A program made the position numbers and the translations under genes. 64,000 bases of DNA. Source: Actinomycetes bacterium. Its GTDB lineage: Bacteria; Actinomycetota; Acidimicrobiia; Acidimicrobiales; Acidimicrobilacustridaceae. Position 1 is the stretch's first letter; the number at the start of each line of letters is the position of its first letter. The stretch covers positions 248,001-312,000 of the forward strand of contig JAKOVH010000026.1 in the NCBI GenBank assembly GCA_029782145.1, given 5' to 3'. Positions 50,518 through 60,946 of this stretch are shown one piece after another. The notes beneath the pieces are model-generated. The model was not told the origin of the DNA, searched no databases, and saw only the letters and a list, made by a program, of their open reading frames with translations.

Positions 50518-50604
50518 CCTCAGGCCCTTCCCCCCGCCGTCGGACGGCGCGACGGTTGGCTCGGCCCGGGCCGCGTGCGCCGATCCGGGCCCGGGAGGAG
50601 CCAC

Positions 50605-53600
50605 GTGGGACGCGAGTGGGCCTGCATCGACGGCAACGAGGCGGCCGCGCGCGTCGCCTACGCGCTCAGCGAGGTGGCGGCGATCTACCCGATCACGCCG
50701 TCGTCACCGATGGGCGAGCACGCCGACGACTGGGCCTCGGCGGGGCGCACCAACCTGTGGGGGTCGGTCGTCGACGTGGTCGAGATGCAGTCGGAGGCGG
50801 GGGCCGCCGGGGCGCTGCACGGAGCGCTGCAGAAAGGGGCGCTGGCCACGACGTTCACGTCGAGCCAGGGCCTGCTGCTCATGATCCCCAACATGTTCAA
50901 GATCGCCGGCGAGCTCACCCCGTGCGTGATGCACGTGGCCGCCCGCACCGTCGCCACCCACGCCCTGTCGATCTTCGGCGACCACTCCGACGTCATGCAC
51001 GCCCGCACCACCGGGTGGGCCATGCTCTCGGCGGCGTCGGTGCAAGAAGCCCATGACTTCGCCCTCGTGGCCCACGCCGCCACGCTGCGCACGCGGGTGC
51101 CGTTCGTGCACTTCTTCGACGGCTTCCGCACCAGCCACGAGGTCGCCAAGATCGAGCTGCTCGCCGACGACGACCTGCGGGCGCTGATCCGCGACAGCGA
51201 CCTGCTCGACCTGCGCGGGCGCGGCATGAGCCCCGATCGGCCCTTCTTGCGGGGGTCGGCGCAGAACCCCGACGTGTTCTTCCAGGCCCGCGAGGCGTCG
51301 AACCCCTTCCACGCCGCCGTGCCGGCGGTGGTGCAGGAGGTGTTCGACGAGCTGGCCGAGCGGGTCGGTCGGCGCTACTCGCTGGTGGAGTACCACGGCG
51401 CGCCGGACGCCGAGCGGGTGATCGTGGTGATGGGCTCCGCCGCCGGGGCGGCAGCCGAGGTCGTCGACCACCTCGTCGCCCGAGGCGAGCCGGTCGGGCT
51501 GGTCACCGTCCGGCTGTTCCGGCCCTTCCCGGCCGAGGCGCTGGTGCGGGCCCTCCCGCCTTCGGTGCGCCGCGTCGCCGTGCTCGACCGCACGAAGGAG
51601 CCGGGCAGCGTCGGTGAGCCGCTCTACCTCGACGTGCGGGCGACCCTCGACGAGGCGATGGAGGGCGACGAGCCGCCCTTCGCCGCCGCGCCGCGGGTGG
51701 TCGGCGGGCGCTACGGGCTGTCGTCGAAGGAGCTGAGCCCCGAGATGGTCGCCGCCGTGTTCGCCGAGCTCGCCGCCGAACGGCCCCGGCGCGAGTTCAC
51801 CGTCGGCATCGTCGACGACGTCACCCACCTCAGCCTGCCGACCCCCGAGGCGGCCTTCCCCCGCCCGCCGGGCGAGGTGCAGGCCGTCTTCTTCGGCCTC
51901 GGCTCCGACGGCACGGTGGGCGCCAACAAGAGCTCGGTGAAGATCATCGGCGAGGGCACCGACCTGTTCGCCCAGGGCTACTTCGTCTACGACTCCAAGA
52001 AGTCGGGGTCGGTCACCGTGTCGCACCTGCGCTTCGGTCCCCGGCCCATCCGCTCCACCTACCTCATCGACGACGCCGACTTCGTCGCCTGCCACCAGTT
52101 CGGGCTGCTCGAGAAGATGAAGGTCGTCGAGCACGCCAAGGTCGGAGGCACCCTGCTGCTCAACAGTCCGTACCCGGCCGAGGAGACGTGGGACCACCTG
52201 CCGGTGGAGGTGCAGCAACAGATCATCGACAAGGACCTGGCCGTCTGGGCGATCGACGCGGCCACCGTGGCCCGGCAGGCGCAGATGGGCAACCGCATCA
52301 ACACGGTGATGCAGCCCTGCTTCTTCGCCCTGTCCGGAGTCCTGCCCTCCGACGAGGCGATCGAGGCCATCAAGGCCTCCGTGGTCAAGGCCTACGCCCG
52401 CCGGGGCCAGGCCATCGTCGAGCGCAACTTCGCCGCCATCGACGCTTCGCTGGCCAACCTCCGCCGGGTCGACGTGCCGGGCACCGTCAGCTCCGGCCGC
52501 CACCGCCAGATCGCGGTGCCCGACGACGCCCCCGAGTTCGTGCGCCGCGTGACCCAGGTGATGATGGCCGGGGACGGTGATCGCCTCCCCGTCTCGGCGC
52601 TGCCGGTCGACGGCACGTTCCCGTCGGGCACGGCGGCGTACGAGAAGCGCTCGATCGCCAAGGAGATCCCGATCTGGGACCCCGACGTGTGCATCGACTG
52701 CGGCAAGTGCGCCATCGTCTGCCCCCACGCCACGATCCGCATGAAGGTGTTCGAGCCGTCGGCCCTCGACGGCGCCCCCCAGCACTATCCGTCCAAGCCC
52801 TTCCGCTCGAAGGACCTGTCGGGCCATCTGCTCACCATCCAGGTGGCGCCCGACGACTGCACCGGCTGCGGCGTGTGCGTCGACGTGTGCCCGGCGAAGT
52901 CCAAGAGCGAGGTGCGCCACAAGGCGATCAACATGGAGCCGGCCGACGAGCACCGGCCCGTGGAGCGAGAGCGGTGGGACTTCTTCCGGTCGATCCCGCC
53001 GCTCGCCCGTGACGCCCTCCCCCACGAGTCCGTCAAGGGCTCACAGGTGCTCGAGCCGCTGTTCGAGTTCTCCGGGGCGTGCGCCGGCTGCGGCGAGACG
53101 CCCTACATCAAGCTCGCCACCCAGCTGTTCGGCGACCGGATGATCGTCGCCAACGCCACCGGCTGCTCCTCCATCTACGGCGGCAACCTCCCGACCACCC
53201 CGTGGACGGTGAACACCGAGGGCCGGGGGCCCGCCTGGAACAACTCGTTGTTCGAGGACAACGCCGAGTTCGGCCTCGGCCTGCGCCTGGGGCTCGAAGC
53301 CCAGCAGACCCTCGCCCGCCGCCTGCTCGAGTCGCTCGCCGGCGACGTGGGCACCGACCTGGCCGAGGCCGTCCTGCGCGCCGAGCAGGGCACCGAGGCC
53401 GAGATCGGCGCGCAGCGGGCCCGGGTGGTCGAGCTGGAGCGACGGCTCACCGCCCTCGCCGAGGGCGCCGACGGGTCCCGGGCCGCCGCCAGCCGCCACC
53501 TCCTCACCATCGTCGACACCCTGGTGCGCAAGGGCGTGTGGATCATCGGCGGCGACGGTTGGGCCTACGACATCGGCTACAACGGCCTCGACCACGTGCT

Positions 53601-54282
53601 GGCGTCGGGTCGCGACGTCAACGTCCTGGTGCTCGACACCGAGGTGTACTCCAACACCGGCGGCCAGTCCTCGAAGGCCACGCCGCGCTCGGCGGTCGCC
53701 AAGTTCGCCGCCTCGGGCAAGGGCGTGCCGAAGAAGGACCTCGGCGCCACCGCCCGCGCCTACGGCAACGTGTACGTGGCCCAGATCTCCATGGGGGCCA
53801 ACGACGTGCAGGCCACCAAGGCCCTGCTCGAGGCCGACGCCTGGCCCGGCCCGTCGCTGGTGATCGCCTACTCCACCTGCATCGCCCACGGCATCGACAT
53901 GTCGAAGTCGATGACCCACCAGAAGGACGCGGTCCGCTCCGGCTACTGGCCGCTCTACCGGTTCCACCCCCACGAGACCGAGACGGGGCGGCCCTTCACC
54001 CTCGATTCGAAGCCTCCCTCGATCCCCGTGCACGACTTCGTGGCGTCGGAGGCCCGCTTCGCCATCCTGCAGCGGACCGACCCGCCCCGGGCCCGCGAGC
54101 TGGCGGCGCTGCTGCAGGCCGACATCGACGAGCGCTGGCGGTACTACACCCAGCTCGCCGGGGTGGAGCGCACCGTCCCGCACATGGCCCAACCTGCCGA
54201 CCCGGCCGACTTCGAGGGCGCACCCGTGCCGGTCGAGGTCCGCTCCGACGCCGGCGACACCACCGAGGAGGGCTCTCCGTGA
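50605..54282 (+). CDS. nifJ: Pyruvate:ferredoxin (flavodoxin) oxidoreductase, one-chain type
   Basis: The 1225-aa enzyme decarboxylates pyruvate to acetyl-CoA and reduces ferredoxin. Domain order is the expected one. The N-terminal domain has AAARVAYALSEVAAIYPITPSSPMGE. The gamma domain (from about 420) has FFGLGSDGTVGANKSS. Two ferredoxin clusters follow, CIDCGKCAIVCPH (about 696) and CTGCGVCVDVCPAKS (about 752). The TPP domain has CAGCGETPYIK (about 827) and GDGWAYDIGYNGLDHVLASG (about 983), with LDTEVYSNTGGQ. GTG 50605 follows GGGAGGAG. There are no nitrogenase genes nearby, so a general redox role is meant. Confidence 0.95.
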   Translation: MGREWACIDGNEAAARVAYALSEVAAIYPITPSSPMGEHADDWASAGRTNLWGSVVDVVEMQSEAGAAGALHGALQKGALATTFTSSQGLLLMIPNMFKIAGELTPCVMHVAARTVATHALSIFGDHSDVMHARTTGWAMLSAASVQEAHDFALVAHAATLRTRVPFVHFFDGFRTSHEVAKIELLADDDLRALIRDSDLLDLRGRGMSPDRPFLRGSAQNPDVFFQAREASNPFHAAVPAVVQEVFDELAERVGRRYSLVEYHGAPDAERVIVVMGSAAGAAAEVVDHLVARGEPVGLVTVRLFRPFPAEALVRALPPSVRRVAVLDRTKEPGSVGEPLYLDVRATLDEAMEGDEPPFAAAPRVVGGRYGLSSKELSPEMVAAVFAELAAERPRREFTVGIVDDVTHLSLPTPEAAFPRPPGEVQAVFFGLGSDGTVGANKSSVKIIGEGTDLFAQGYFVYDSKKSGSVTVSHLRFGPRPIRSTYLIDDADFVACHQFGLLEKMKVVEHAKVGGTLLLNSPYPAEETWDHLPVEVQQQIIDKDLAVWAIDAATVARQAQMGNRINTVMQPCFFALSGVLPSDEAIEAIKASVVKAYARRGQAIVERNFAAIDASLANLRRVDVPGTVSSGRHRQIAVPDDAPEFVRRVTQVMMAGDGDRLPVSALPVDGTFPSGTAAYEKRSIAKEIPIWDPDVCIDCGKCAIVCPHATIRMKVFEPSALDGAPQHYPSKPFRSKDLSGHLLTIQVAPDDCTGCGVCVDVCPAKSKSEVRHKAINMEPADEHRPVERERWDFFRSIPPLARDALPHESVKGSQVLEPLFEFSGACAGCGETPYIKLATQLFGDRMIVANATGCSSIYGGNLPTTPWTVNTEGRGPAWNNSLFEDNAEFGLGLRLGLEAQQTLARRLLESLAGDVGTDLAEAVLRAEQGTEAEIGAQRARVVELERRLTALAEGADGSRAAASRHLLTIVDTLVRKGVWIIGGDGWAYDIGYNGLDHVLASGRDVNVLVLDTEVYSNTGGQSSKATPRSAVAKFAASGKGVPKKDLGATARAYGNVYVAQISMGANDVQATKALLEADAWPGPSLVIAYSTCIAHGIDMSKSMTHQKDAVRSGYWPLYRFHPHETETGRPFTLDSKPPSIPVHDFVASEARFAILQRTDPPRARELAALLQADIDERWRYYTQLAGVERTVPHMAQPADPADFEGAPVPVEVRSDAGDTTEEGSP

Positions 54283-55313
54283 GCGCCGACCTGACCACCC
54301 GCTACCTCGGCCTCGAGCTGGCAGCGCCCCTCGTGGCCTCGGCCAGCCCGCTCAACGAGCACGCCGACACGGCCAAGGCCGTCGTCGACGCCGGAGCCGC
54401 CGCCGTCGTCATGCCGTCGCTGTTCGAGGAGGAGATCCTCCACGACGAGATCTCGCTCAACGAGGCGCTCGAGGTGGGCTCCGAGCACGTCGGTGAGACG
54501 CTCGACTACTTCCCCGACTTCGCCGAGATCCCCACCGTCGCCGACCGCTACGTCCGCGCCCTGGAGGTGCTGCGCGCCGCGGTCGACGTGCCGGTCATCG
54601 CCAGCCTCAACGCCGTGCACCCAGGGTCGTGGGCCGGCTACGCCAGCCGGCTGGCCGACGCCGGCGCCGACGCCATCGAGCTCAACCTCTACTCGGTGGC
54701 CGCCGACCCGTCGCGCTCGGCCGCCGACATCGAGGCCGAGAAGCTCGACGTCATCGCCCAGGTCCGCGCCGCGGTGGGCGTGCCCCTCGCGGTGAAGCTG
54801 TCGCCGTACTACACGTCGTTCGCCCACTTCGCCTGCCAGGTCTGCGAGGTGGGCGCCGACGGGCTCGTGGTCTTCAACCGCTTCTACCAGCCCGACGTCG
54901 ACCTCGGCACCATGGAGGTCGTGCCCAAGCTCGAGCTGTCGTCGCACTGGGAGCTGCGCCTGCCGCTGCGCTGGGTCGCCATCCTGCGCCCGCTGCTGCC
55001 CGAGGCGTCGCTCGCCGCCACCTCCGGCATCGGCACCGGGCTCGACGCCGCCAAGGTCATCGCCGTCGGCGCCGACGTGGCCATGATGACCTCCGCCGTG
55101 CTGGCCGAGGGGCCGGTCGCCATCACCCGTGCCCTCGACGAGCTGCAGCGCTGGCTCGACCACCATGACTACGAGTCGGTGAGCCAGCTGAGGGGCTCGA
55201 TGAGCTACGCCACCAGCGACGATCCGGGTGCCTTCGAGCGGGCCAACTACCGCCGGGTGCTGCACTCGTGGGTGGCGCCGACGAACCTCCAGCCGTCGTC
55301 ACCTTCCGGCTGA
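54279..55313 (+). CDS. Dihydroorotate dehydrogenase-like flavoprotein
   Basis: The 344-aa FMN TIM-barrel has LTTRYLGLELAAPLVASASPLN, VIASLNAVHPGSWAGYASRLADAGADAIELNLY, LAVKLSPYYTSFAHFA and ATSGIGTGLDAAKVIAVGADV. It resembles PyrD, but the set of catalytic loop residues differs and it is coupled to the PFOR gene by a GTGA overlap, not to pyrimidine genes. Such PFOR-linked DHOD-like proteins probably exchange electrons with ferredoxin. The substrate is unknown. Confidence 0.87.
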   Translation: MSADLTTRYLGLELAAPLVASASPLNEHADTAKAVVDAGAAAVVMPSLFEEEILHDEISLNEALEVGSEHVGETLDYFPDFAEIPTVADRYVRALEVLRAAVDVPVIASLNAVHPGSWAGYASRLADAGADAIELNLYSVAADPSRSAADIEAEKLDVIAQVRAAVGVPLAVKLSPYYTSFAHFACQVCEVGADGLVVFNRFYQPDVDLGTMEVVPKLELSSHWELRLPLRWVAILRPLLPEASLAATSGIGTGLDAAKVIAVGADVAMMTSAVLAEGPVAITRALDELQRWLDHHDYESVSQLRGSMSYATSDDPGAFERANYRRVLHSWVAPTNLQPSSPSG

Positions 55314-55429: not shown

Positions 55430-56506
55430 GTGAGCTCGAGCACCGCGGCGACCACGAGGGCCTCCGCGTCCCGGCGCGACCGGGTCGACGTGCGCGCGAC
55501 CGCGATCGGCCTCGTCGCCGTGGGGGTGGTGCTGGTCGGGGTGTACCTCGGCAGCGGTGGGCTGCGCTGGTTCGATGCCGCGCTGGCGGGCTACCTGGTC
55601 GGGGTGCTGCTCGCCGTGTTCGCCACGGTCTACCGCTACCTCGTCTGGCTCCAGCGCCCGCCGACCGCCTGCCTGAACCGCCGGGGCTGGCAGGCCTTCC
55701 GGGCTCGGGGCCGACGGGGCCGCAACGCGGTCGGCCTGGTGGGCGAGGTCGGCACGAACCTGTTGGCGCAGGGCTTCATCCGTCGTCGGTCCACCACCCG
55801 GTGGGCCGCGCACCAGCTGGTGTTCTGGGGCTGCCTGCTGGCGGCCGCCGTCACCTTCCCGCTCACGTTCGGGTGGGTGCACTTCCGCTCGGTCGGCCAG
55901 GACGGCAGCCACTACCGCGCCTACCTCTTCGGCGTCGGCAGCGGCACCTTCGACGCCACCAGCGTCGTCGGCTTCACCATCTTCCACCTGCTCAACATCG
56001 CCGCAGTGCTGGTGATCGCCGGTGTGGCCGTCTTCCTCTACCGGCGCCTGCGCGACCCGGGGGCGCTGGCCGTCGAGCGCTCGGGCGACTTCCTCGCCCT
56101 CGCCGGGCTGTTCGCCGTGTCGATCACCGGCATGTTCCTCACCGCGTCGAGCATGTGGCTCGACGGCCAGTACTACAGCTTCCTCAACAACCTCCACGCC
56201 CTCACCGTGATCCTCGGCCTGCTCTACATCCCGTTCGGCAAGCTCTTCCACATCTTCCAGCGCCCCGCCAACATCGGGGTGCACTTCTACAAGAGCGCCG
56301 GCGCCGAGGGCCCCCAGCAGCAGTGCCGGCGTTGCGGTGAGCCGTTCGCGTCGGCGCTGCAGATCGGCGACCTCGAGGCCGTGCTGCCCCAGCTCGGCTT
56401 CGACTACGGCGACGGTGCCGGGGGCAACTACCAGGAGACCTGCCCGCGCTGCCGGAGGAACCTCGTGACGCTCGCCCAGTCCGCCAGGGTGGGAGGCTTC
56501 GGCTGA
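55430..56506 (+). CDS. NarI-like di-heme membrane protein with C-terminal zinc-ribbon
   Basis: The 358-aa protein has about six transmembrane helices and membrane histidines H128, H186, H256 and H274, a bis-heme b pattern as in NarI (end motif [22 protein letters not shown]). A soluble tail has C299-x2-C302 and C338-x2-C341, which could bind Zn or Fe; this tail is unusual for NarI. It probably connects the quinone pool to the redox enzymes downstream. The stop overlaps the next start. GTG 55430 follows GAGGGGAGG. Confidence 0.75.
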
Positions 56507-58737
56507 TGGCCGAGCTGCCCGTCACCGAGGCCGAGCTCATCGACCGCTTCGGTCCCCACCTCAACGTCGAACCGGCCGGCGGCTGGAACGCCGGCATCGA
56601 CTTCGACCGCGAGGTCGAGACCCACTGCTGCTTCTGCGGGCAGCAGTGCGGCATCAAGCTGAAGGTGAAGGACGACAAGGTCGTGGGCTTCGAGCCCTGG
56701 TACGACTTCCCGTTCAACGAGGGCAAGCTGTGCCCCAAGGGCGTCAAGCGCTACCTGCAGAACGAGAGCCCGGACCGCCTGCTCGACCCGATGGTGCGCG
56801 ACCCCGGAGCCCCGGGCGGGTTCCGAGCGGTGTCCTGGGACGAGGCCCTCGACCGCACGGTGAGCGAGATCCAGCGCATCCAGCAGGCGTACGGCAAGGA
56901 CGCCTTCGCCTTGCTGTCGGGCGTCTCGCTGAGCAACGAGAAGTCCTACCTGATCGGCAAGTTCGCCCGGCTCGGCCTCCAGACCGCCAACCTCGACTAC
57001 AACGGCCGGCTGTGCATGGTGTCGGCCGGGGCCGCCGGCAAGCGGGCGCTGGGGCTCGACCGGGCCGCCAACCCGTGGAGCGACATCCCCCTCGCCGACG
57101 TGGTGATGCTCGTCGGGTGCAACGTGGCCGAGTGCGCGCCCATCACCACGAGCTACGTGTGGCGGGCCCGCGACCGTGGCGCCAAGCTCGTGGTGATCGA
57201 CCCCCGGGTCACGCCCATCGCCCGCACCGCCGACCTGTTCCTCGGCGTGCGCCCGGGCACCGACTCGGCGGTGCTCGGCGCCATGCTCCACGTGATCATC
57301 GAGAACGACTGGGTCGACCACGAGTTCGTGGCCGCCCACACCGTCGGCTTCGACGAGGTGGCGCAGTCCGTGGCCGACCACACCCCGGAGTGGGCGGCGA
57401 AGCTCAGCGGCGTGCCCGCCGAGCGCATCGTGGAGGCGGCCCGGCTCTGGGGCACGTCGGCCACCGGCATGCTCATGCACGCCAGGGGCATCGAGCACCA
57501 CACCAAGGGCGTCGACAACGTGACGGCCTGCATCAACCTGGGGTTGGCCACCGGCAAGTACGGCAAGCCGGGCTGCGGCGTCACCACCATCACCGGCCAG
57601 GGCAACGGCCAGGGCGGGCGCGAGCAGGGCCACAAGTGCGACCAGCTGCCAGGCAACCGCGACATCACCAACCCCGAGCACCGGGCCTACATCGCCTCGG
57701 TGTGGCAGTGCGCCGTCGACGAGATCCCCGGCAAGGGCCTCACCGCCCAGGAGATCATGAACGCCATCCACGACGGCGAGATCAAGGGCCTGCTGTCGAT
57801 CTGCTTCAACCCGCTGGTGTCGCTGCCCGAGACGCGCTTCACCGAGGAGGCCCTCGACCGCCTCGAGTTCTACGCCGCCATCGACTTCTTCCTCTCGGAG
57901 TCGGCCCAGCACGCTGACGTGGTGCTGGCCGGCTCGCTGCACGAGGAGGACGAGGGCACCGCCACGTCGTCCGAGGGCCGGGTCTGCAAGCTGAACGCGG
58001 CCAAGGCGCCGCCGGGCAACGCCTGGCTCGACTGGGAGATCGTCCTCGACCTGGCTCGCCGGCTGGGCCGGGAGAGGTACTTCCCGTTCCGCAACACGCG
58101 GGAGATGTTCGACGAGATGCGGGTGGCGTCCCACGGCGGCACCGCCGACTACTACGGCATCACCTGGGAGCAGATCGAGGCCCAGCACGGCGTGTTCTGG
58201 CCGTGCCCGGAGATCGGCCACCCCGGCACGCCTCGCCTGTTCGAGGGCGGACGCTTCTACCACCCCGACGGCAAGGCCAAGTTCTTCCCGGCGCCCTACC
58301 GGCCCTCGGCCGAAGAGGTCGACGACGAGTACCCGATCTGGCTCACCACCGGCCGGGTGATCAGCCAGTACCTGTCGGGCACCCAGACCCGGCGCATCGG
58401 GCCGCTGGTCGAGCAGTACCCCGAGCCCCTCTGCGAGATGCACCCCCGGCTGGCCGAGCAGCTCGGCGTGGTCACCGGCGACGTGGTGCGGGTGACCTCC
58501 CGCCGGGGGTCGATGGACCTGCCGGCGCGCGTGGTGGAGACCATCCGGCCCGACACGGTGTTCATCCCGTACCACTGGCCGGGCCGGCAGGCCGCCAACC
58601 AGCTCACCCAGCGGGCCCTCGACCCCATCTCCAAGATCCCCGAGTTCAAGGTGTCCGCGGTGCGGATCGAGCGCACCGGCGAGCACCGCGAGGTGCACGA
58701 CAAGCGGGTCACCACCCTGCACGAGGAGCGCCGCTGA
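56506..58737 (+). CDS. Molybdopterin oxidoreductase of the NasA/NapA nitrate-reductase type
   Basis: The 743-aa bis-MGD enzyme has an N-terminal [4Fe-4S] site C41/C44-x2-x-C48 ... C76 ([16 protein letters not shown]). The Mo-binding loop [18 protein letters not shown] places Cys170 as the ligand, as in assimilatory and periplasmic nitrate reductases. [21 protein letters not shown] is the conserved molybdopterin loop, and the C-terminal cap domain starts at about 610. There is no Tat signal, so it faces the cytosol unless carried by a partner. Neighbouring Rieske, ferredoxin and NarI-like genes suggest a multi-subunit complex. Formate dehydrogenase is less likely given the Mo-loop sequence. 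Confidence 0.85.
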
Positions 58738-59378
58738 TGACCGTCACCTCGCCGCTGTCGGCCCACCTGGTGTCGGACCAGGTGTTCGTCATCGACCAGA
58801 GCCGCTGCATCGGCTGCGAGGCCTGCGTGCAGGCGTGCGAGGAGTGCGGCACCCACCGGGGCACGTCGCTCATCCACCTCGAGTTCGTCGACCGCACCAC
58901 GTCCACCCAGACCGCGCCCCAGGTCTGCATGCACTGCCAGGACCCGACGTGCGCCGAGGTGTGCCCGGCCGACGCCATCAAGCAGAACGAGGACGGCGTG
59001 GTGCAGTCGTCGCTCAAGCCCCGCTGCATCGGCTGCTCGAACTGCGTGCTGGCGTGCCCGTTCGGGGTGCCGAAGTACTTCGCCCTCCCGGACCAGATGA
59101 TGAAGTGCGACATGTGCTACGACCGCAGCTCGGCCGGGCTCAAGCCGATGTGCGCGTCGGTGTGCCCCAGCCAGGCGCTGTGGTTCGGCACGCCCGAGGA
59201 GTTCGCCGCCACGCGGCGAGGGGAGCTGCTGTTCGAGTTCCGCTTCGGCAACCAGGTGGTGCCCACCAAGGTGGCCACCGTGGTCGACCGCGCCGACGAC
59301 GGTCCCCTCGACGTGCTCGGCGACCCCGGCGGCTTCCGCTGGCAGGACGACCCGTTCGGCCTGGCGGGGGTCGTCTGA
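58737..59378 (+). CDS. Four-cluster [4Fe-4S] ferredoxin subunit (NrfC/DmsB type)
   Basis: The 213-aa protein has four Cys clusters: [41 protein letters not shown], and CDMCYDR with CASVCP. This is the standard electron-wire subunit of membrane molybdoenzymes. It lacks a signal peptide. Its start overlaps the stop of the molybdenum subunit (TGATG), and the next gene begins on its stop, so all should be made in fixed proportions. Confidence 0.92.
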
Positions 59379-59956
59379 TGGAGCCGAGGGACGTCGAGCG
59401 GCAGGGCCCCGACCGGGCGGGGGACCCGGTCGAGGCAGCCGTGGCCGGGGGCCCCGCTCCCGCTGAGGCGCCCGGCGGCGAGGCCCTGTGGCGGCGCGAC
59501 TTCCCGCTGACCTCGGCGGGGGAGGAGCAGATCACCCGGCGGGAGTTCACCCGCTACCTCCTCGCTGCCTCGGCCGCGTTCGCGGTGAGCACCGTGGGTG
59601 CCGGGGTGTGGGCCACCGTGCAATCGGCCCCGAGTGGGGGGCCTCAGCAGATCGTGGCGCTGGCCGACGTGCCGGAGGGGGCCTCGTACCTGTTCGCCTA
59701 CCCGACGAGCGACGACCCGGCCATGTTGTTGCACCTCCCCGGCGGCGAGCTGCGGGCCTTCAGCCAGAAGTGCACCCACCTGGGGTGCGTGGTGGTCTGG
59801 CAGCCCGACCGTGACCGTGTCTTCTGCCCGTGCCACGAGGGCGTGTTCGACCCCGACACGGGCGAGCCCACCGCCGGCCCGCCGGTGCGGGCGCTCAGCC
59901 GCATCGACGTCGAGGTGCGCCAGGGCGTGGTGTGGGCCACCGGGGTGACGGCGTGA
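59378..59956 (+). CDS. Tat-exported Rieske [2Fe-2S] protein
   Basis: The 192-aa protein has a twin-arginine signal-anchor (R54-R55 in RREFTRYLLAASAAFAVST). The Rieske domain has C132-T-H134-LG-C137 and C150-PC-H153, with the extra Cys pair for the disulfide. It should sit on the outer face of the membrane. Rieske subunits normally belong to bc complexes or arsenite oxidase, so finding one in a nitrate-reductase-like operon is unusual. Confidence 0.9.
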   Translation: MEPRDVERQGPDRAGDPVEAAVAGGPAPAEAPGGEALWRRDFPLTSAGEEQITRREFTRYLLAASAAFAVSTVGAGVWATVQSAPSGGPQQIVALADVPEGASYLFAYPTSDDPAMLLHLPGGELRAFSQKCTHLGCVVVWQPDRDRVFCPCHEGVFDPDTGEPTAGPPVRALSRIDVEVRQGVVWATGVTA

Positions 59957-60264
59957 CCGCCGCGGCCCACCCCGAGCGCCCTCCCCGGGGACCGACGGAG
60001 CCGGGAGGTGCCCTGGAGGGGCCGGCCCGCACCCCGTCGGGTGGCCCCTTCGCCGTGCCGGAGCGACGGCGAGCCGCCGCCAAGCGCACCAACGCCGTGC
60101 TCGTCTACCTGCTCCTGCTGGTCTCGCTGCAGGTCTTCCTGCTGGTCGTGGCCGTCGAGGGGGTCCTCGGCCACGAGCCGGCGCTGGCCCGCAACGCCGC
60201 CATCCTCTCGTTGGTGGTGCTGGCCATGGCCGCGCTGACGAGGTGGTTCCTCCGTGACGACTGA
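59953..60264 (+). CDS. Small membrane protein of the redox operon
   Basis: The 103-aa protein starts with GTG overlapping the Rieske stop (GTGA). It has a Pro-rich cytosolic segment and two transmembrane helices (about 49-70 and 78-98). It is probably a complex-specific accessory or small subunit. No family is recognised with certainty. Confidence 0.7.
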   Translation: MTAAAHPERPPRGPTEPGGALEGPARTPSGGPFAVPERRRAAAKRTNAVLVYLLLLVSLQVFLLVVAVEGVLGHEPALARNAAILSLVVLAMAALTRWFLRDD

Positions 60265-60946
60265 CGACGGCGTCGGCCCCGAGCGACCTCCCGCACGCCC
60301 AGCCCGCCCGGCCAGCCCGTCGCCGCCCGGCGAAGGCCCGGTCCGACCGGGGCCGATCGGCGGTGACATCGCCGCGGTCGTCCACGGCTTCGGCCAGCGG
60401 TTCCGGCTGCCCGCCCTCATGGAGCGCCACACCTCCACCTCGGTGATGGGCCTGTTCGCCTTCGTGAACGGCGTCGTCGCCATCGGGCTCATGGCCGCCG
60501 CCGCGGCCGTCACGGGCGAGCCCTTCATCTTCCCATCTCTCGGCCCCACCGCGTTCCTGCTCTTCTACACACCGACGGTGCCGGCGGCGTGCCCTCGCAA
60601 CACGATCTTCGGCCACGCCATCGGGGCCGCTGCCGGCTACCTCGCGCTCGTGGTGTTCGGCCTCACCGACGCCCCGCCGGCGCTGGCCACCAGCGTCACC
60701 TGGGGTCGGGTGGGCGCGGCCGCGCTCTCGCTCGGGCTCACGAGCGGGCTCATGGTGTGGTGCCGGGTGCCCCACCCGCCGGCGGGTGCCACCACCTTGA
60801 TCGTGTCGCTCGGCATCCTGCGCCAGCCGGTGCAGCTGGCCGTGCTCATGCTGGCGGTCGTGCTGCTGGTGGTGCAGGGCTTCGTCATCAACCGCCTGGC
60901 GGGGATCCGCTATCCCGTGTGGCGACCGAACCCGGCCCCGGGCTGA
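60254..60946 (+). CDS. HPP-family integral membrane protein
   Basis: The 230-aa protein has an N-terminal Pro-rich region, then four or more transmembrane helices with FIFPSLGPTAFLLFYTP, PRNTIFGHAIGAAAGY and the name-giving motif HPPAGATTLIVSLG. Plant and cyanobacterial HPP proteins include nitrite transporters. Its place as the last gene (11-bp overlap) of a nitrate-reductase-like operon supports a nitrite or nitrate transport role here. Confidence 0.88.
   Translation: MTTDDGVGPERPPARPARPASPSPPGEGPVRPGPIGGDIAAVVHGFGQRFRLPALMERHTSTSVMGLFAFVNGVVAIGLMAAAAAVTGEPFIFPSLGPTAFLLFYTPTVPAACPRNTIFGHAIGAAAGYLALVVFGLTDAPPALATSVTWGRVGAAALSLGLTSGLMVWCRVPHPPAGATTLIVSLGILRQPVQLAVLMLAVVLLVVQGFVINRLAGIRYPVWRPNPAPG

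What the first reader, a model, noticed from the sequence alone, without database searches (positions are those of the whole stretch)
55430..60946. Unconventional nitrate-reductase-like operon with NarI-like, NasA/NapA-like, ferredoxin, Rieske and HPP proteins
Six genes overlap or touch end to end. The molybdenum subunit has the Cys170 loop of nitrate reductases, the membrane subunit has four heme-ligand His and an added zinc-ribbon tail, a Tat-exported Rieske replaces any usual NapB or NarH partner, and the last gene is of the HPP family that includes nitrite transporters. A Rieske outside and a cytosolic NasA-like subunit imply electrons crossing the membrane, perhaps from quinol to nitrate or in reverse for nitrite oxidation. 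I know of no characterised complex with this set.
Basis: partly seen in the sequence, partly recalled or inferred. Interest (0 to 1): 0.75.

Follow-up and report, generated by a model that had tools for sequence, protein, structure and literature searches.

The report
Membrane-anchored NasC-type nitrate reductase operon
These genes most likely build a nitrate-reducing enzyme inside the cell that is wired to the membrane's quinone pool, a layout not described for this enzyme branch in the open papers searched here, yet carried as one block by bacteria of about eight phyla, so a large group of bacteria may respire or assimilate nitrate by an overlooked route.

Summary
At 55430-60946 six genes lie head to tail, and every junction overlaps: a NarI-like cytochrome b with a four-Cys ribbon tail, a Cys-ligated Mo subunit, a four-[4Fe-4S] protein, a twin-arginine Rieske, a DUF6755 membrane protein and an HPP protein. 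The first four form a conserved unit: 64 of 64 related loci with enough room carry them in this order. Hosts include Actinomycetota, Deinococcota, Verrucomicrobiota, Bacteroidota, Acidobacteriota and Myxococcota. The Mo subunits form one clade beside Gram-positive NasC, and grouping them with formate dehydrogenases is rejected (p-AU 1e-8). Neighbours are NarK transporters, or HPP but never both, and in Verrucomicrobiota assimilatory nitrite reductase. Most likely this is a menaquinol-driven cytoplasmic nitrate reductase: NarI-like electron entry joined to a NasC-type catalytic subunit. One correction: only three heme histidines are invariant; the fourth is Asn in Verrucomicrobiota. A lead: the ribbon tail matches the HycF tail that contacts HycB and FdhF in formate hydrogenlyase. 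What the Rieske does is unresolved. Nothing supports nitrite oxidation. The window genome has no NarG, NapA or NarK above curated cut-offs. Published surveys say Nas-clade enzymes lack four-cluster and membrane-anchor partners; this family is an exception. No biochemical test exists.

The parts
55430..56506 (+). CytB: NarI-fold cytochrome b, six predicted TM helices (one more than NarI) and a C-terminal four-Cys ribbon (C299, C302, C338, C341)
   Evidence: Pfam Nitrate_red_gam 22.5 bits; NCBIfam TmcC/QmoC weak; AF2 model pLDDT 91; VIA Z 11.8 EtfD, 11.2 NarI, tail Z 6.5 HycF; His and Cys conservation
56506..58737 (+). Mo catalytic subunit: bis-MGD, one [4Fe-4S] (C41, C44, C48, C76), Mo ligand C170 followed by M171; no signal peptide motif
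   Evidence: Pfam Molybdopterin 190 bits; NCBIfam NasC 785 bits against Fdh-alpha 586; tree and AU test; loop
58737..59379 (+). FeS subunit with 16 cluster-type Cys in the DmsB/NarH pattern, i.e. four [4Fe-4S]
   Evidence: NCBIfam DmsB 100 bits; invariant Cys in 15 rows; PDB FdnH E 6e-31
59378..59956 (+). Rieske protein with twin-arginine N-terminal anchor; cluster motif CTHLGC...CPCHEGVF
   Evidence: Pfam Rieske 38 bits; RR and ligands invariant in 16 rows; CPCHxGxF in all 65 readable of 68
59953..60264 (+). DUF6755 small membrane protein (103 aa), optional accessory
   Evidence: Pfam PF20540 29.9 bits; found in 21 of 47 roomy loci
60254..60946 (+). HPP-family membrane protein, inferred nitrate/nitrite (probably nitrite) transporter
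   Evidence: Pfam TM_HPP 93.7 bits; takes the place of NarK: 9 loci with HPP, 25 with NarK, 0 with both of 47; no NarK over cut-off in this genome
50575..55313 (+). Adjacent upstream pair: pyruvate:ferredoxin oxidoreductase NifJ (50575-54282) and dihydroorotate-dehydrogenase-like protein (54279-55313); same strand, 116-bp gap; not a conserved neighbour
   Evidence: NCBIfam TIGR02176 1700 bits, PRK07565 388 bits; NifJ in none of the related loci, DHOD once

Best explanation
The operon encodes a membrane-bound menaquinol:nitrate reductase with a cytoplasmic active site, built from a NasC-type catalytic subunit. Menaquinol is oxidised on the outer side of the NarI-fold cytochrome b. Electrons pass from the outer heme (H256, with H186 in most members) to the inner heme (H128/H274), then through four [4Fe-4S] clusters of the FeS subunit and the [4Fe-4S] of the Mo subunit to molybdenum, where nitrate becomes nitrite. 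The ribbon tail of CytB holds the FeS/Mo module on the membrane, much as the HycF tail contacts HycB and FdhF in formate hydrogenlyase. HPP (NarK in other lineages) moves nitrate or nitrite. Use is lineage-dependent: assimilatory in Verrucomicrobiota, probably respiratory in Streptomyces and perhaps here. Shown by sequence: gene set, order, conservation, NasC kinship, cofactor motifs, NarI fold. Inferred: substrate, direction, quinol as donor, topology of the assembled complex, HPP function. Unknown: the role of the outward Rieske; the simplest guess is that it sits at the outer quinol site as an extra one-electron relay or electron entry point.
For: Mo subunit: best NCBIfam NasC 785 bits, sister of NirB-linked NasC at 97/93 with all operon members one clade at 100/100, FDH grouping rejected p 9.9e-9, Cys-Met loop of nitrate reductases instead of Cys-His of FDHs in every member. 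Partners: NarI fold Z 11.2, far above unrelated rows at 6.6; H256 and H274 align with NarI H187 and H205; four-cluster ferredoxin. Context: NarK, TIGR00886, in 25 of 47 roomy loci; NirA/NirB/flavodoxin reductase in Verrucomicrobiota; Deinococcus plasmid operon ends in an annotated nitrate/nitrite transporter. HPP and NarK never together, 0 of 47, Fisher p 4e-4 without phylogenetic correction. Window genome: no NarG, NapA or NarK over cut-off. Oxygen-sensitive pyruvate enzymes next door: PFL in 8 Streptomyces loci, NifJ here. Tail matches HycF, whose tail contacts HycB and lies near FdhF (PMC9474812).
Against: No activity has been measured. Substrate is inferred from kinship and neighbours; 13 of 47 roomy loci show neither NarK nor HPP. 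The outer heme's second ligand is not conserved. A NarI-type route needs no Rieske, so its strict conservation is unexplained. NasC enzymes with known function are assimilatory and not quinol-linked (PMC7331816). NifJ adjacency is unique to this genome.
Confidence: 0.72

Rival explanations
1. Purely assimilatory nitrate reductase in all lineages: the same complex, but it serves only to supply nitrogen, with quinol as an unusual donor for assimilation.
For: NasC sister group is assimilatory; Verrucomicrobiota operons carry NirA, NirB, flavodoxin reductase and the kinase/phosphatase also seen beside a proteobacterial nas operon. Window genome has one NirA-like protein, below the NirA cut-off.
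Against: Most Streptomyces, and all Flavobacterium, Deinococcus and window loci lack linked nitrite reductase; Streptomyces loci often have PFL and its activase. A proton-motive membrane complex is costly for assimilation only.
Confidence: 0.3
2. Exported enzyme: the twin-arginine Rieske carries the leaderless Mo and FeS subunits out by hitchhiking, as AioB does with AioA, and the active site faces outward.
For: Rieske is the only subunit with a twin arginine, and AioB is among its best structural-database matches; AioA lies near NasC in published trees (PMC7331816).
Against: NarK or HPP transporters in most roomy loci and cytosolic NirA/NirB in some imply nitrate reduction inside; the CytB C-terminal ribbon, on the cytoplasmic side by the positive-inside pattern, is the predicted docking site.
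Confidence: 0.07
3. Nitrite oxidation (reverse direction), Nxr-like.
For: Chemically reversible; the HPP family includes nitrite transporters (general knowledge). No tool result supports it.
Against: Known Nxr catalytic subunits are NarG-type (general knowledge); here NasC kinship, no c-type cytochrome or oxidase in the conserved unit, and NirA/NirB in some loci. Most cultured hosts are ordinary heterotrophs.
Confidence: 0.04
4. Formate dehydrogenase or another formate-linked enzyme feeding quinone.
For: Second-best NCBIfam is Fdh-alpha (586 bits) and PDB best hits are FDHs; PFL, a formate producer, lies next to Streptomyces loci; tail resembles HycF of formate hydrogenlyase.
Against: AU test rejects FDH grouping; FDH loop His is replaced by Met in every member; NarK neighbours.
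Confidence: 0.04
5. Reductase for another oxyanion, such as chlorate or selenate, with nitrate a side substrate.
For: MopB enzymes change substrate often; 13 of 47 roomy loci have no nitrate-type transporter nearby.
Against: NasC kinship and recurrent NarK or nitrite reductase genes.
Confidence: 0.06

Closest known systems
NasC, Gram-positive assimilatory nitrate reductase (Bacillus, Paenibacillus, Mycobacterium)
   Same: Closest catalytic subunit (tree 97/93); same size, single N-terminal [4Fe-4S], Cys-Met Mo loop
   Different: NasC loci seen here have NirB(D), no cytochrome b, no four-cluster ferredoxin and no twin-arginine Rieske
NarGHI respiratory nitrate reductase
   Same: NarI-fold anchor, four-cluster iron-sulfur subunit, cytoplasmic Mo subunit, quinol as inferred donor
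   Different: NarG is about 1,240 aa, Asp-ligated, and its model scores only 51 bits here; no narJ; distal heme ligand apparently moved from the NarI H66 position (now invariant Ala138) to H186; extra TM helix, ribbon tail and Rieske
Haloarchaeal nar cluster with Rieske/cytochrome b (NarC) and the Methanoperedens Rieske/cyt b route
   Same: Rieske plus cytochrome b tied to nitrate reductase (PMC4683180; PMC8301774)
   Different: Cytochrome b there is bc1-type, catalytic subunit is NarG-type and outward-facing
Formate hydrogenlyase (FdhF-HycB-HycF)
   Same: Cytosolic Mo subunit plus HycB-type four-cluster protein, and a CxxC-x34-CPxC ribbon like the CytB tail
   Different: No quinone, hydrogenase output, ribbon sits on a NuoI-type subunit
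AioBA arsenite oxidase
   Same: Mo subunit of a neighbouring clade with a twin-arginine Rieske partner (general knowledge; PMC7331816)
   Different: Periplasmic, no cytochrome b, no four-cluster ferredoxin, Mo without amino-acid ligand

Membership tests
NasC/NasA assimilatory nitrate reductase (catalytic subunit) | Catalytic subunit falls within or beside the NasC clade | tested here: met
   Sister to NirB-linked NasC, 97/93; own clade 100/100
NasC/NasA assimilatory nitrate reductase (catalytic subunit) | Scores above the curated NasC equivalog cut-off (1100 bits) | tested here: not met
   785 bits; 0 of 60 Actinomycetota genomes pass, so the cut-off is narrow
NasC/NasA assimilatory nitrate reductase (catalytic subunit) | Linked to assimilatory nitrite reductase | tested here: inconclusive
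   Yes in 6 of 47 roomy loci, mostly Verrucomicrobiota; not in the window
NarGHI | Asp-ligated NarG-type catalytic subunit | tested here: not met
   Cys170; NarG model 51 bits against cut-off 1084
NarGHI | NarI-fold membrane subunit with heme ligands on the last TM helix | tested here: met
   VIA Z 11.2, rmsd 5.2, 181 aligned; H256/H274 align with H187/H205
NarGHI | Four His heme ligands placed as in NarI (H56, H66, H187, H205) | tested here: not met
   H66 position is invariant Ala138 by spacing; H186 on another helix and not invariant
NarGHI | Four-cluster iron-sulfur (NarH-type) subunit | tested here: met
   16 cluster Cys invariant; all-[4Fe-4S] DmsB pattern rather than NarH's [3Fe-4S] is inferred
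NapA | Tat signal on the Mo subunit and NapB/C/D/G/H partners | tested here: not met
   No twin-arginine motif in the first 60 residues of any Mo subunit; neighbours
Formate dehydrogenase | Groups with FDHs and has Cys/Sec-His loop | tested here: not met
   AU p 9.9e-9; Met in all members
bc1/b6f-type Rieske complex | bc-type cytochrome b partner | tested here: not met
   Partner is NarI-fold
bc1/b6f-type Rieske complex | High-potential Rieske motif CPCHGSxY | tested here: not met
   CPCHxGxF in all 65 readable sequences
Nitrite oxidoreductase (Nxr) | NarG-type catalytic subunit and nitrite-oxidising activity | tested here: not met
   NarG-type subunit absent from operon and genome; activity not testable here
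HPP nitrite transporters | TM_HPP domain | tested here: met
   93.7 bits
HPP nitrite transporters | Nitrite transport | not testable with these tools
   Only context: never together with NarK

The most novel reading that the evidence does not exclude
The outward Rieske and the NarI-type cytochrome b together form a quinol-oxidising module of a kind not described: menaquinol gives its electrons one at a time to the Rieske cluster and to the outer heme, and the Rieske electron either rejoins the cytosolic path or leaves to a second acceptor, so that nitrate reduction is coupled to a Q-cycle-like step built on a non-bc1 cytochrome b. The loss of the Ser and Tyr hydrogen bonds in the Rieske would lower its potential to suit menaquinol.
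Probability: 0.13. Interest if true: 0.85.

Novelty: new variant of a known kind. Interest (0 to 1): 0.62.

Why it matters
Published surveys of the superfamily state that the Nas/Nap/Aio/cytosolic-Fdh clade is not associated with four-cluster or membrane-anchor subunits (PMC7331816) and that NasC/NasA functions only in assimilation (PMC10100899). This family breaks the first rule in about eight phyla and makes the second doubtful. Genomes that hold only this operon, such as the window's, would be scored as unable to respire nitrate by the usual narG/napA markers. RefSeq labels the Deinococcus cytochrome b an 'MFS transporter'. Cultured carriers (Flavobacterium, Deinococcus, Streptomyces, Chthoniobacter) make it directly testable.

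Tried and rejected
Formate dehydrogenase reading: rejected by AU test and loop residues. NifJ/DHOD as part of the system: NifJ is in no other related locus and DHOD in one, so left as a neighbour. Foldseek alone gave no CytB match under E 0.001; the second look by VIA separated NarI and EtfD from noise. One automatic ORF pass mis-called overlapping genes and was redone by tblastn. Ten literature searches found no paper describing this gene set; subscription papers were not searchable, so absence is weak evidence. DUF6755 has no paper in that library.
Full report
What is there. Six genes on the + strand at 55430-60946 overlap at every junction, by 1 to 11 bases. In order: CytB 55430-56506, Mo 56506-58737, FeS 58737-59379, Rieske 59378-59956, DUF6755 59953-60264, HPP 60254-60946. 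Upstream on the same strand lie NifJ and a dihydroorotate-dehydrogenase-like gene, 116 bp away. The window is part of a 4.24-Mb, 34-contig genome, 98% complete; its closest named relatives in CytB are Microthrixaceae and Acidimicrobiia MAGs, so it is very probably an actinobacterium.

It is a family. In 296 genomes of the phylum, 16 carry a clear CytB, all beside the Mo gene (two further hits at E about 2e-4 discounted). In named genomes 391 loci encode CytB relatives, of which the best 80 were kept. Of the 64 that extend at least 4.3 kb past CytB, all 64 have CytB-Mo-FeS-Rieske in that order on one strand within 7 kb. Hosts include Acidimicrobiia and Nitriliruptorales MAGs, Streptomyces, Kitasatospora, Catellatospora, Flavobacterium, Chthoniobacter flavus, other Verrucomicrobiota, Acidobacteriota, Myxococcota and Deinococcales, plus single MAGs labelled Chloroflexota and Bacillota, which may be mis-binned. 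Four Deinococcus plasmids carry it too. Distance matrices of the four proteins over 39 thinned loci correlate at r 0.75-0.91, never reached in 2000 permutations, so the four travel together.

What the Mo subunit is. The best curated model is NasC (785 bits, below its 1100 cut-off), then Fdh-alpha (586). A careful maximum-likelihood tree of 39 sequences puts all 23 operon members in one clade (100/100) beside NasC genes that sit next to nirB (97/93); formate dehydrogenases, NapA and proteobacterial-type NasA lie elsewhere. Forcing the operon members together with the FDHs is rejected, p-AU 9.9e-9. The Mo-ligand loop reads C-M in every operon member, as in NasC, NasA and NapA; the FDHs read C-H. 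No Mo subunit has a twin-arginine leader.

What the partners are. CytB was modelled at mean pLDDT 91. Its nearest solved folds are M. smegmatis EtfD (Z 11.8, rmsd 4.8, 230 aligned) and E. coli NarI (Z 11.2, rmsd 5.2, 181 aligned), clearly above the first unrelated row at 6.6. Profile alignment sets H256 and H274 on NarI H187 and H205. By spacing from the helix start H128 takes the place of NarI H56, and NarI H66 is an invariant Ala138; this last step is my inference. H186, at the outer end of the next helix, could serve the outer heme instead, but it is Asn in eight Verrucomicrobiota and Arg in one locus. So the inner heme (H128/H274) is secure and the outer one is remodelled. [quoted passage not shown] coli formate hydrogenlyase (52 residues, rmsd 1.7 A, 31% identity, Z 6.5; sequence E 0.11 alone). 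In that complex the extension binds one metal by CxxC-x34-CPxC, contacts HycB and lies near FdhF (PMC9474812). CytB has CRRC-x35-CPRC, and its operon encodes a HycB-like FeS and an FdhF-like Mo subunit. I therefore propose that the tail docks the soluble module on the membrane. Flavobacterium has lost three of the four Cys.

The FeS subunit has 16 cluster-type Cys, all invariant, and its closest solved relative is FdnH. The Rieske has an invariant twin arginine followed by a hydrophobic stretch, both cluster ligand pairs and the two disulfide Cys. Its second motif is CPCHxGxF in all 65 readable sequences, so the Ser and Tyr that raise the potential of bc1 Rieske clusters are absent. From general knowledge of bc1 mutants this predicts a lower potential, suited to menaquinol.

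Context. NarK-type nitrate/nitrite transporters lie in 25 of 47 loci with room on both sides; HPP lies in 9; none has both (Fisher p 4e-4, not corrected for kinship). This supports HPP standing in for NarK. The window genome has no NarK, NarG or NapA above curated cut-offs. Verrucomicrobiota loci add NirA, NirB, flavodoxin reductase and a kinase/phosphatase, an assimilatory set; Streptomyces loci add pyruvate formate-lyase and its activase; Flavobacterium adds a 2-hydroxyacid dehydrogenase. Pyruvate enzymes sensitive to oxygen next door, PFL there and NifJ here, hint at anoxic use, but the NifJ link is seen once.

How it probably works. Menaquinol is oxidised at the outer face of CytB, electrons run inward over the hemes to FeS and Mo, nitrate becomes nitrite in the cytoplasm, and nitrite is moved by HPP or NarK. 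That is NarI-type electron entry married to a NasC-type catalytic subunit. The Rieske is strictly conserved but has no necessary place in this path; this is the main open point.

Novelty. Wells et al. 2020 state that no member of the Nas/Nap/Aio/Fdh clade is associated with the canonical four-cluster or membrane-anchor subunits (PMC7331816), and Wells et al. 2023 that NasC/NasA functions exclusively in assimilation (PMC10100899). Haloarchaea and Methanoperedens pair a Rieske/cyt b with nitrate reduction, but with a bc1-type cytochrome b and an outward NarG-type enzyme (PMC4683180; PMC8301774). I found no paper on the present set in the open library; subscription journals were not searched. I rate it a new variant of a known kind.

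Noticed in passing
L002 / L161:10309-12789 (window genome contig C12:10309-12789): A second Nas/Nap-like Mo protein in the same genome has lost the N-terminal [4Fe-4S] cysteines (ASILHSNGDAM...RLGPKD) while keeping the Mo Cys; a Deinococcus aetherius relative annotated 'nitrate reductase' keeps three of the Cys but has Gly at the fourth.
   Followed up: partly
L124:10889-12001: RefSeq names the Deinococcus CytB homologue 'MFS transporter', which it is not by NarI/QmoC-type profile match.
   Followed up: yes
L091, L121 (Flavobacterium): CytB tail keeps ribbon-like sequence but has lost three of four metal Cys (CKETG...SPEG), so metal binding may not be needed for docking.
   Followed up: partly
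L112, L108, L109, L114, L115, L096, L089, L099: Streptomyces loci place pyruvate formate-lyase and its activase directly upstream of the operon, often with NarK: a possible anaerobic island in organisms regarded as aerobes.
   Followed up: no
L080, L078, L084, L087, L088, L101, L105 and L135 (Verrucomicrobiota and a Comamonadaceae plasmid): A PP2C-phosphatase/Ser-Thr-kinase fusion sits beside nitrate-reduction genes in both groups, suggesting a shared regulator.
   Followed up: no
L154:895-2343 (window genome contig C13): NirK-like multicopper protein with an N-terminal EfeO-like part, 164 bits against a cut-off of 296; a possible but unproven nitrite reductase.
   Followed up: no
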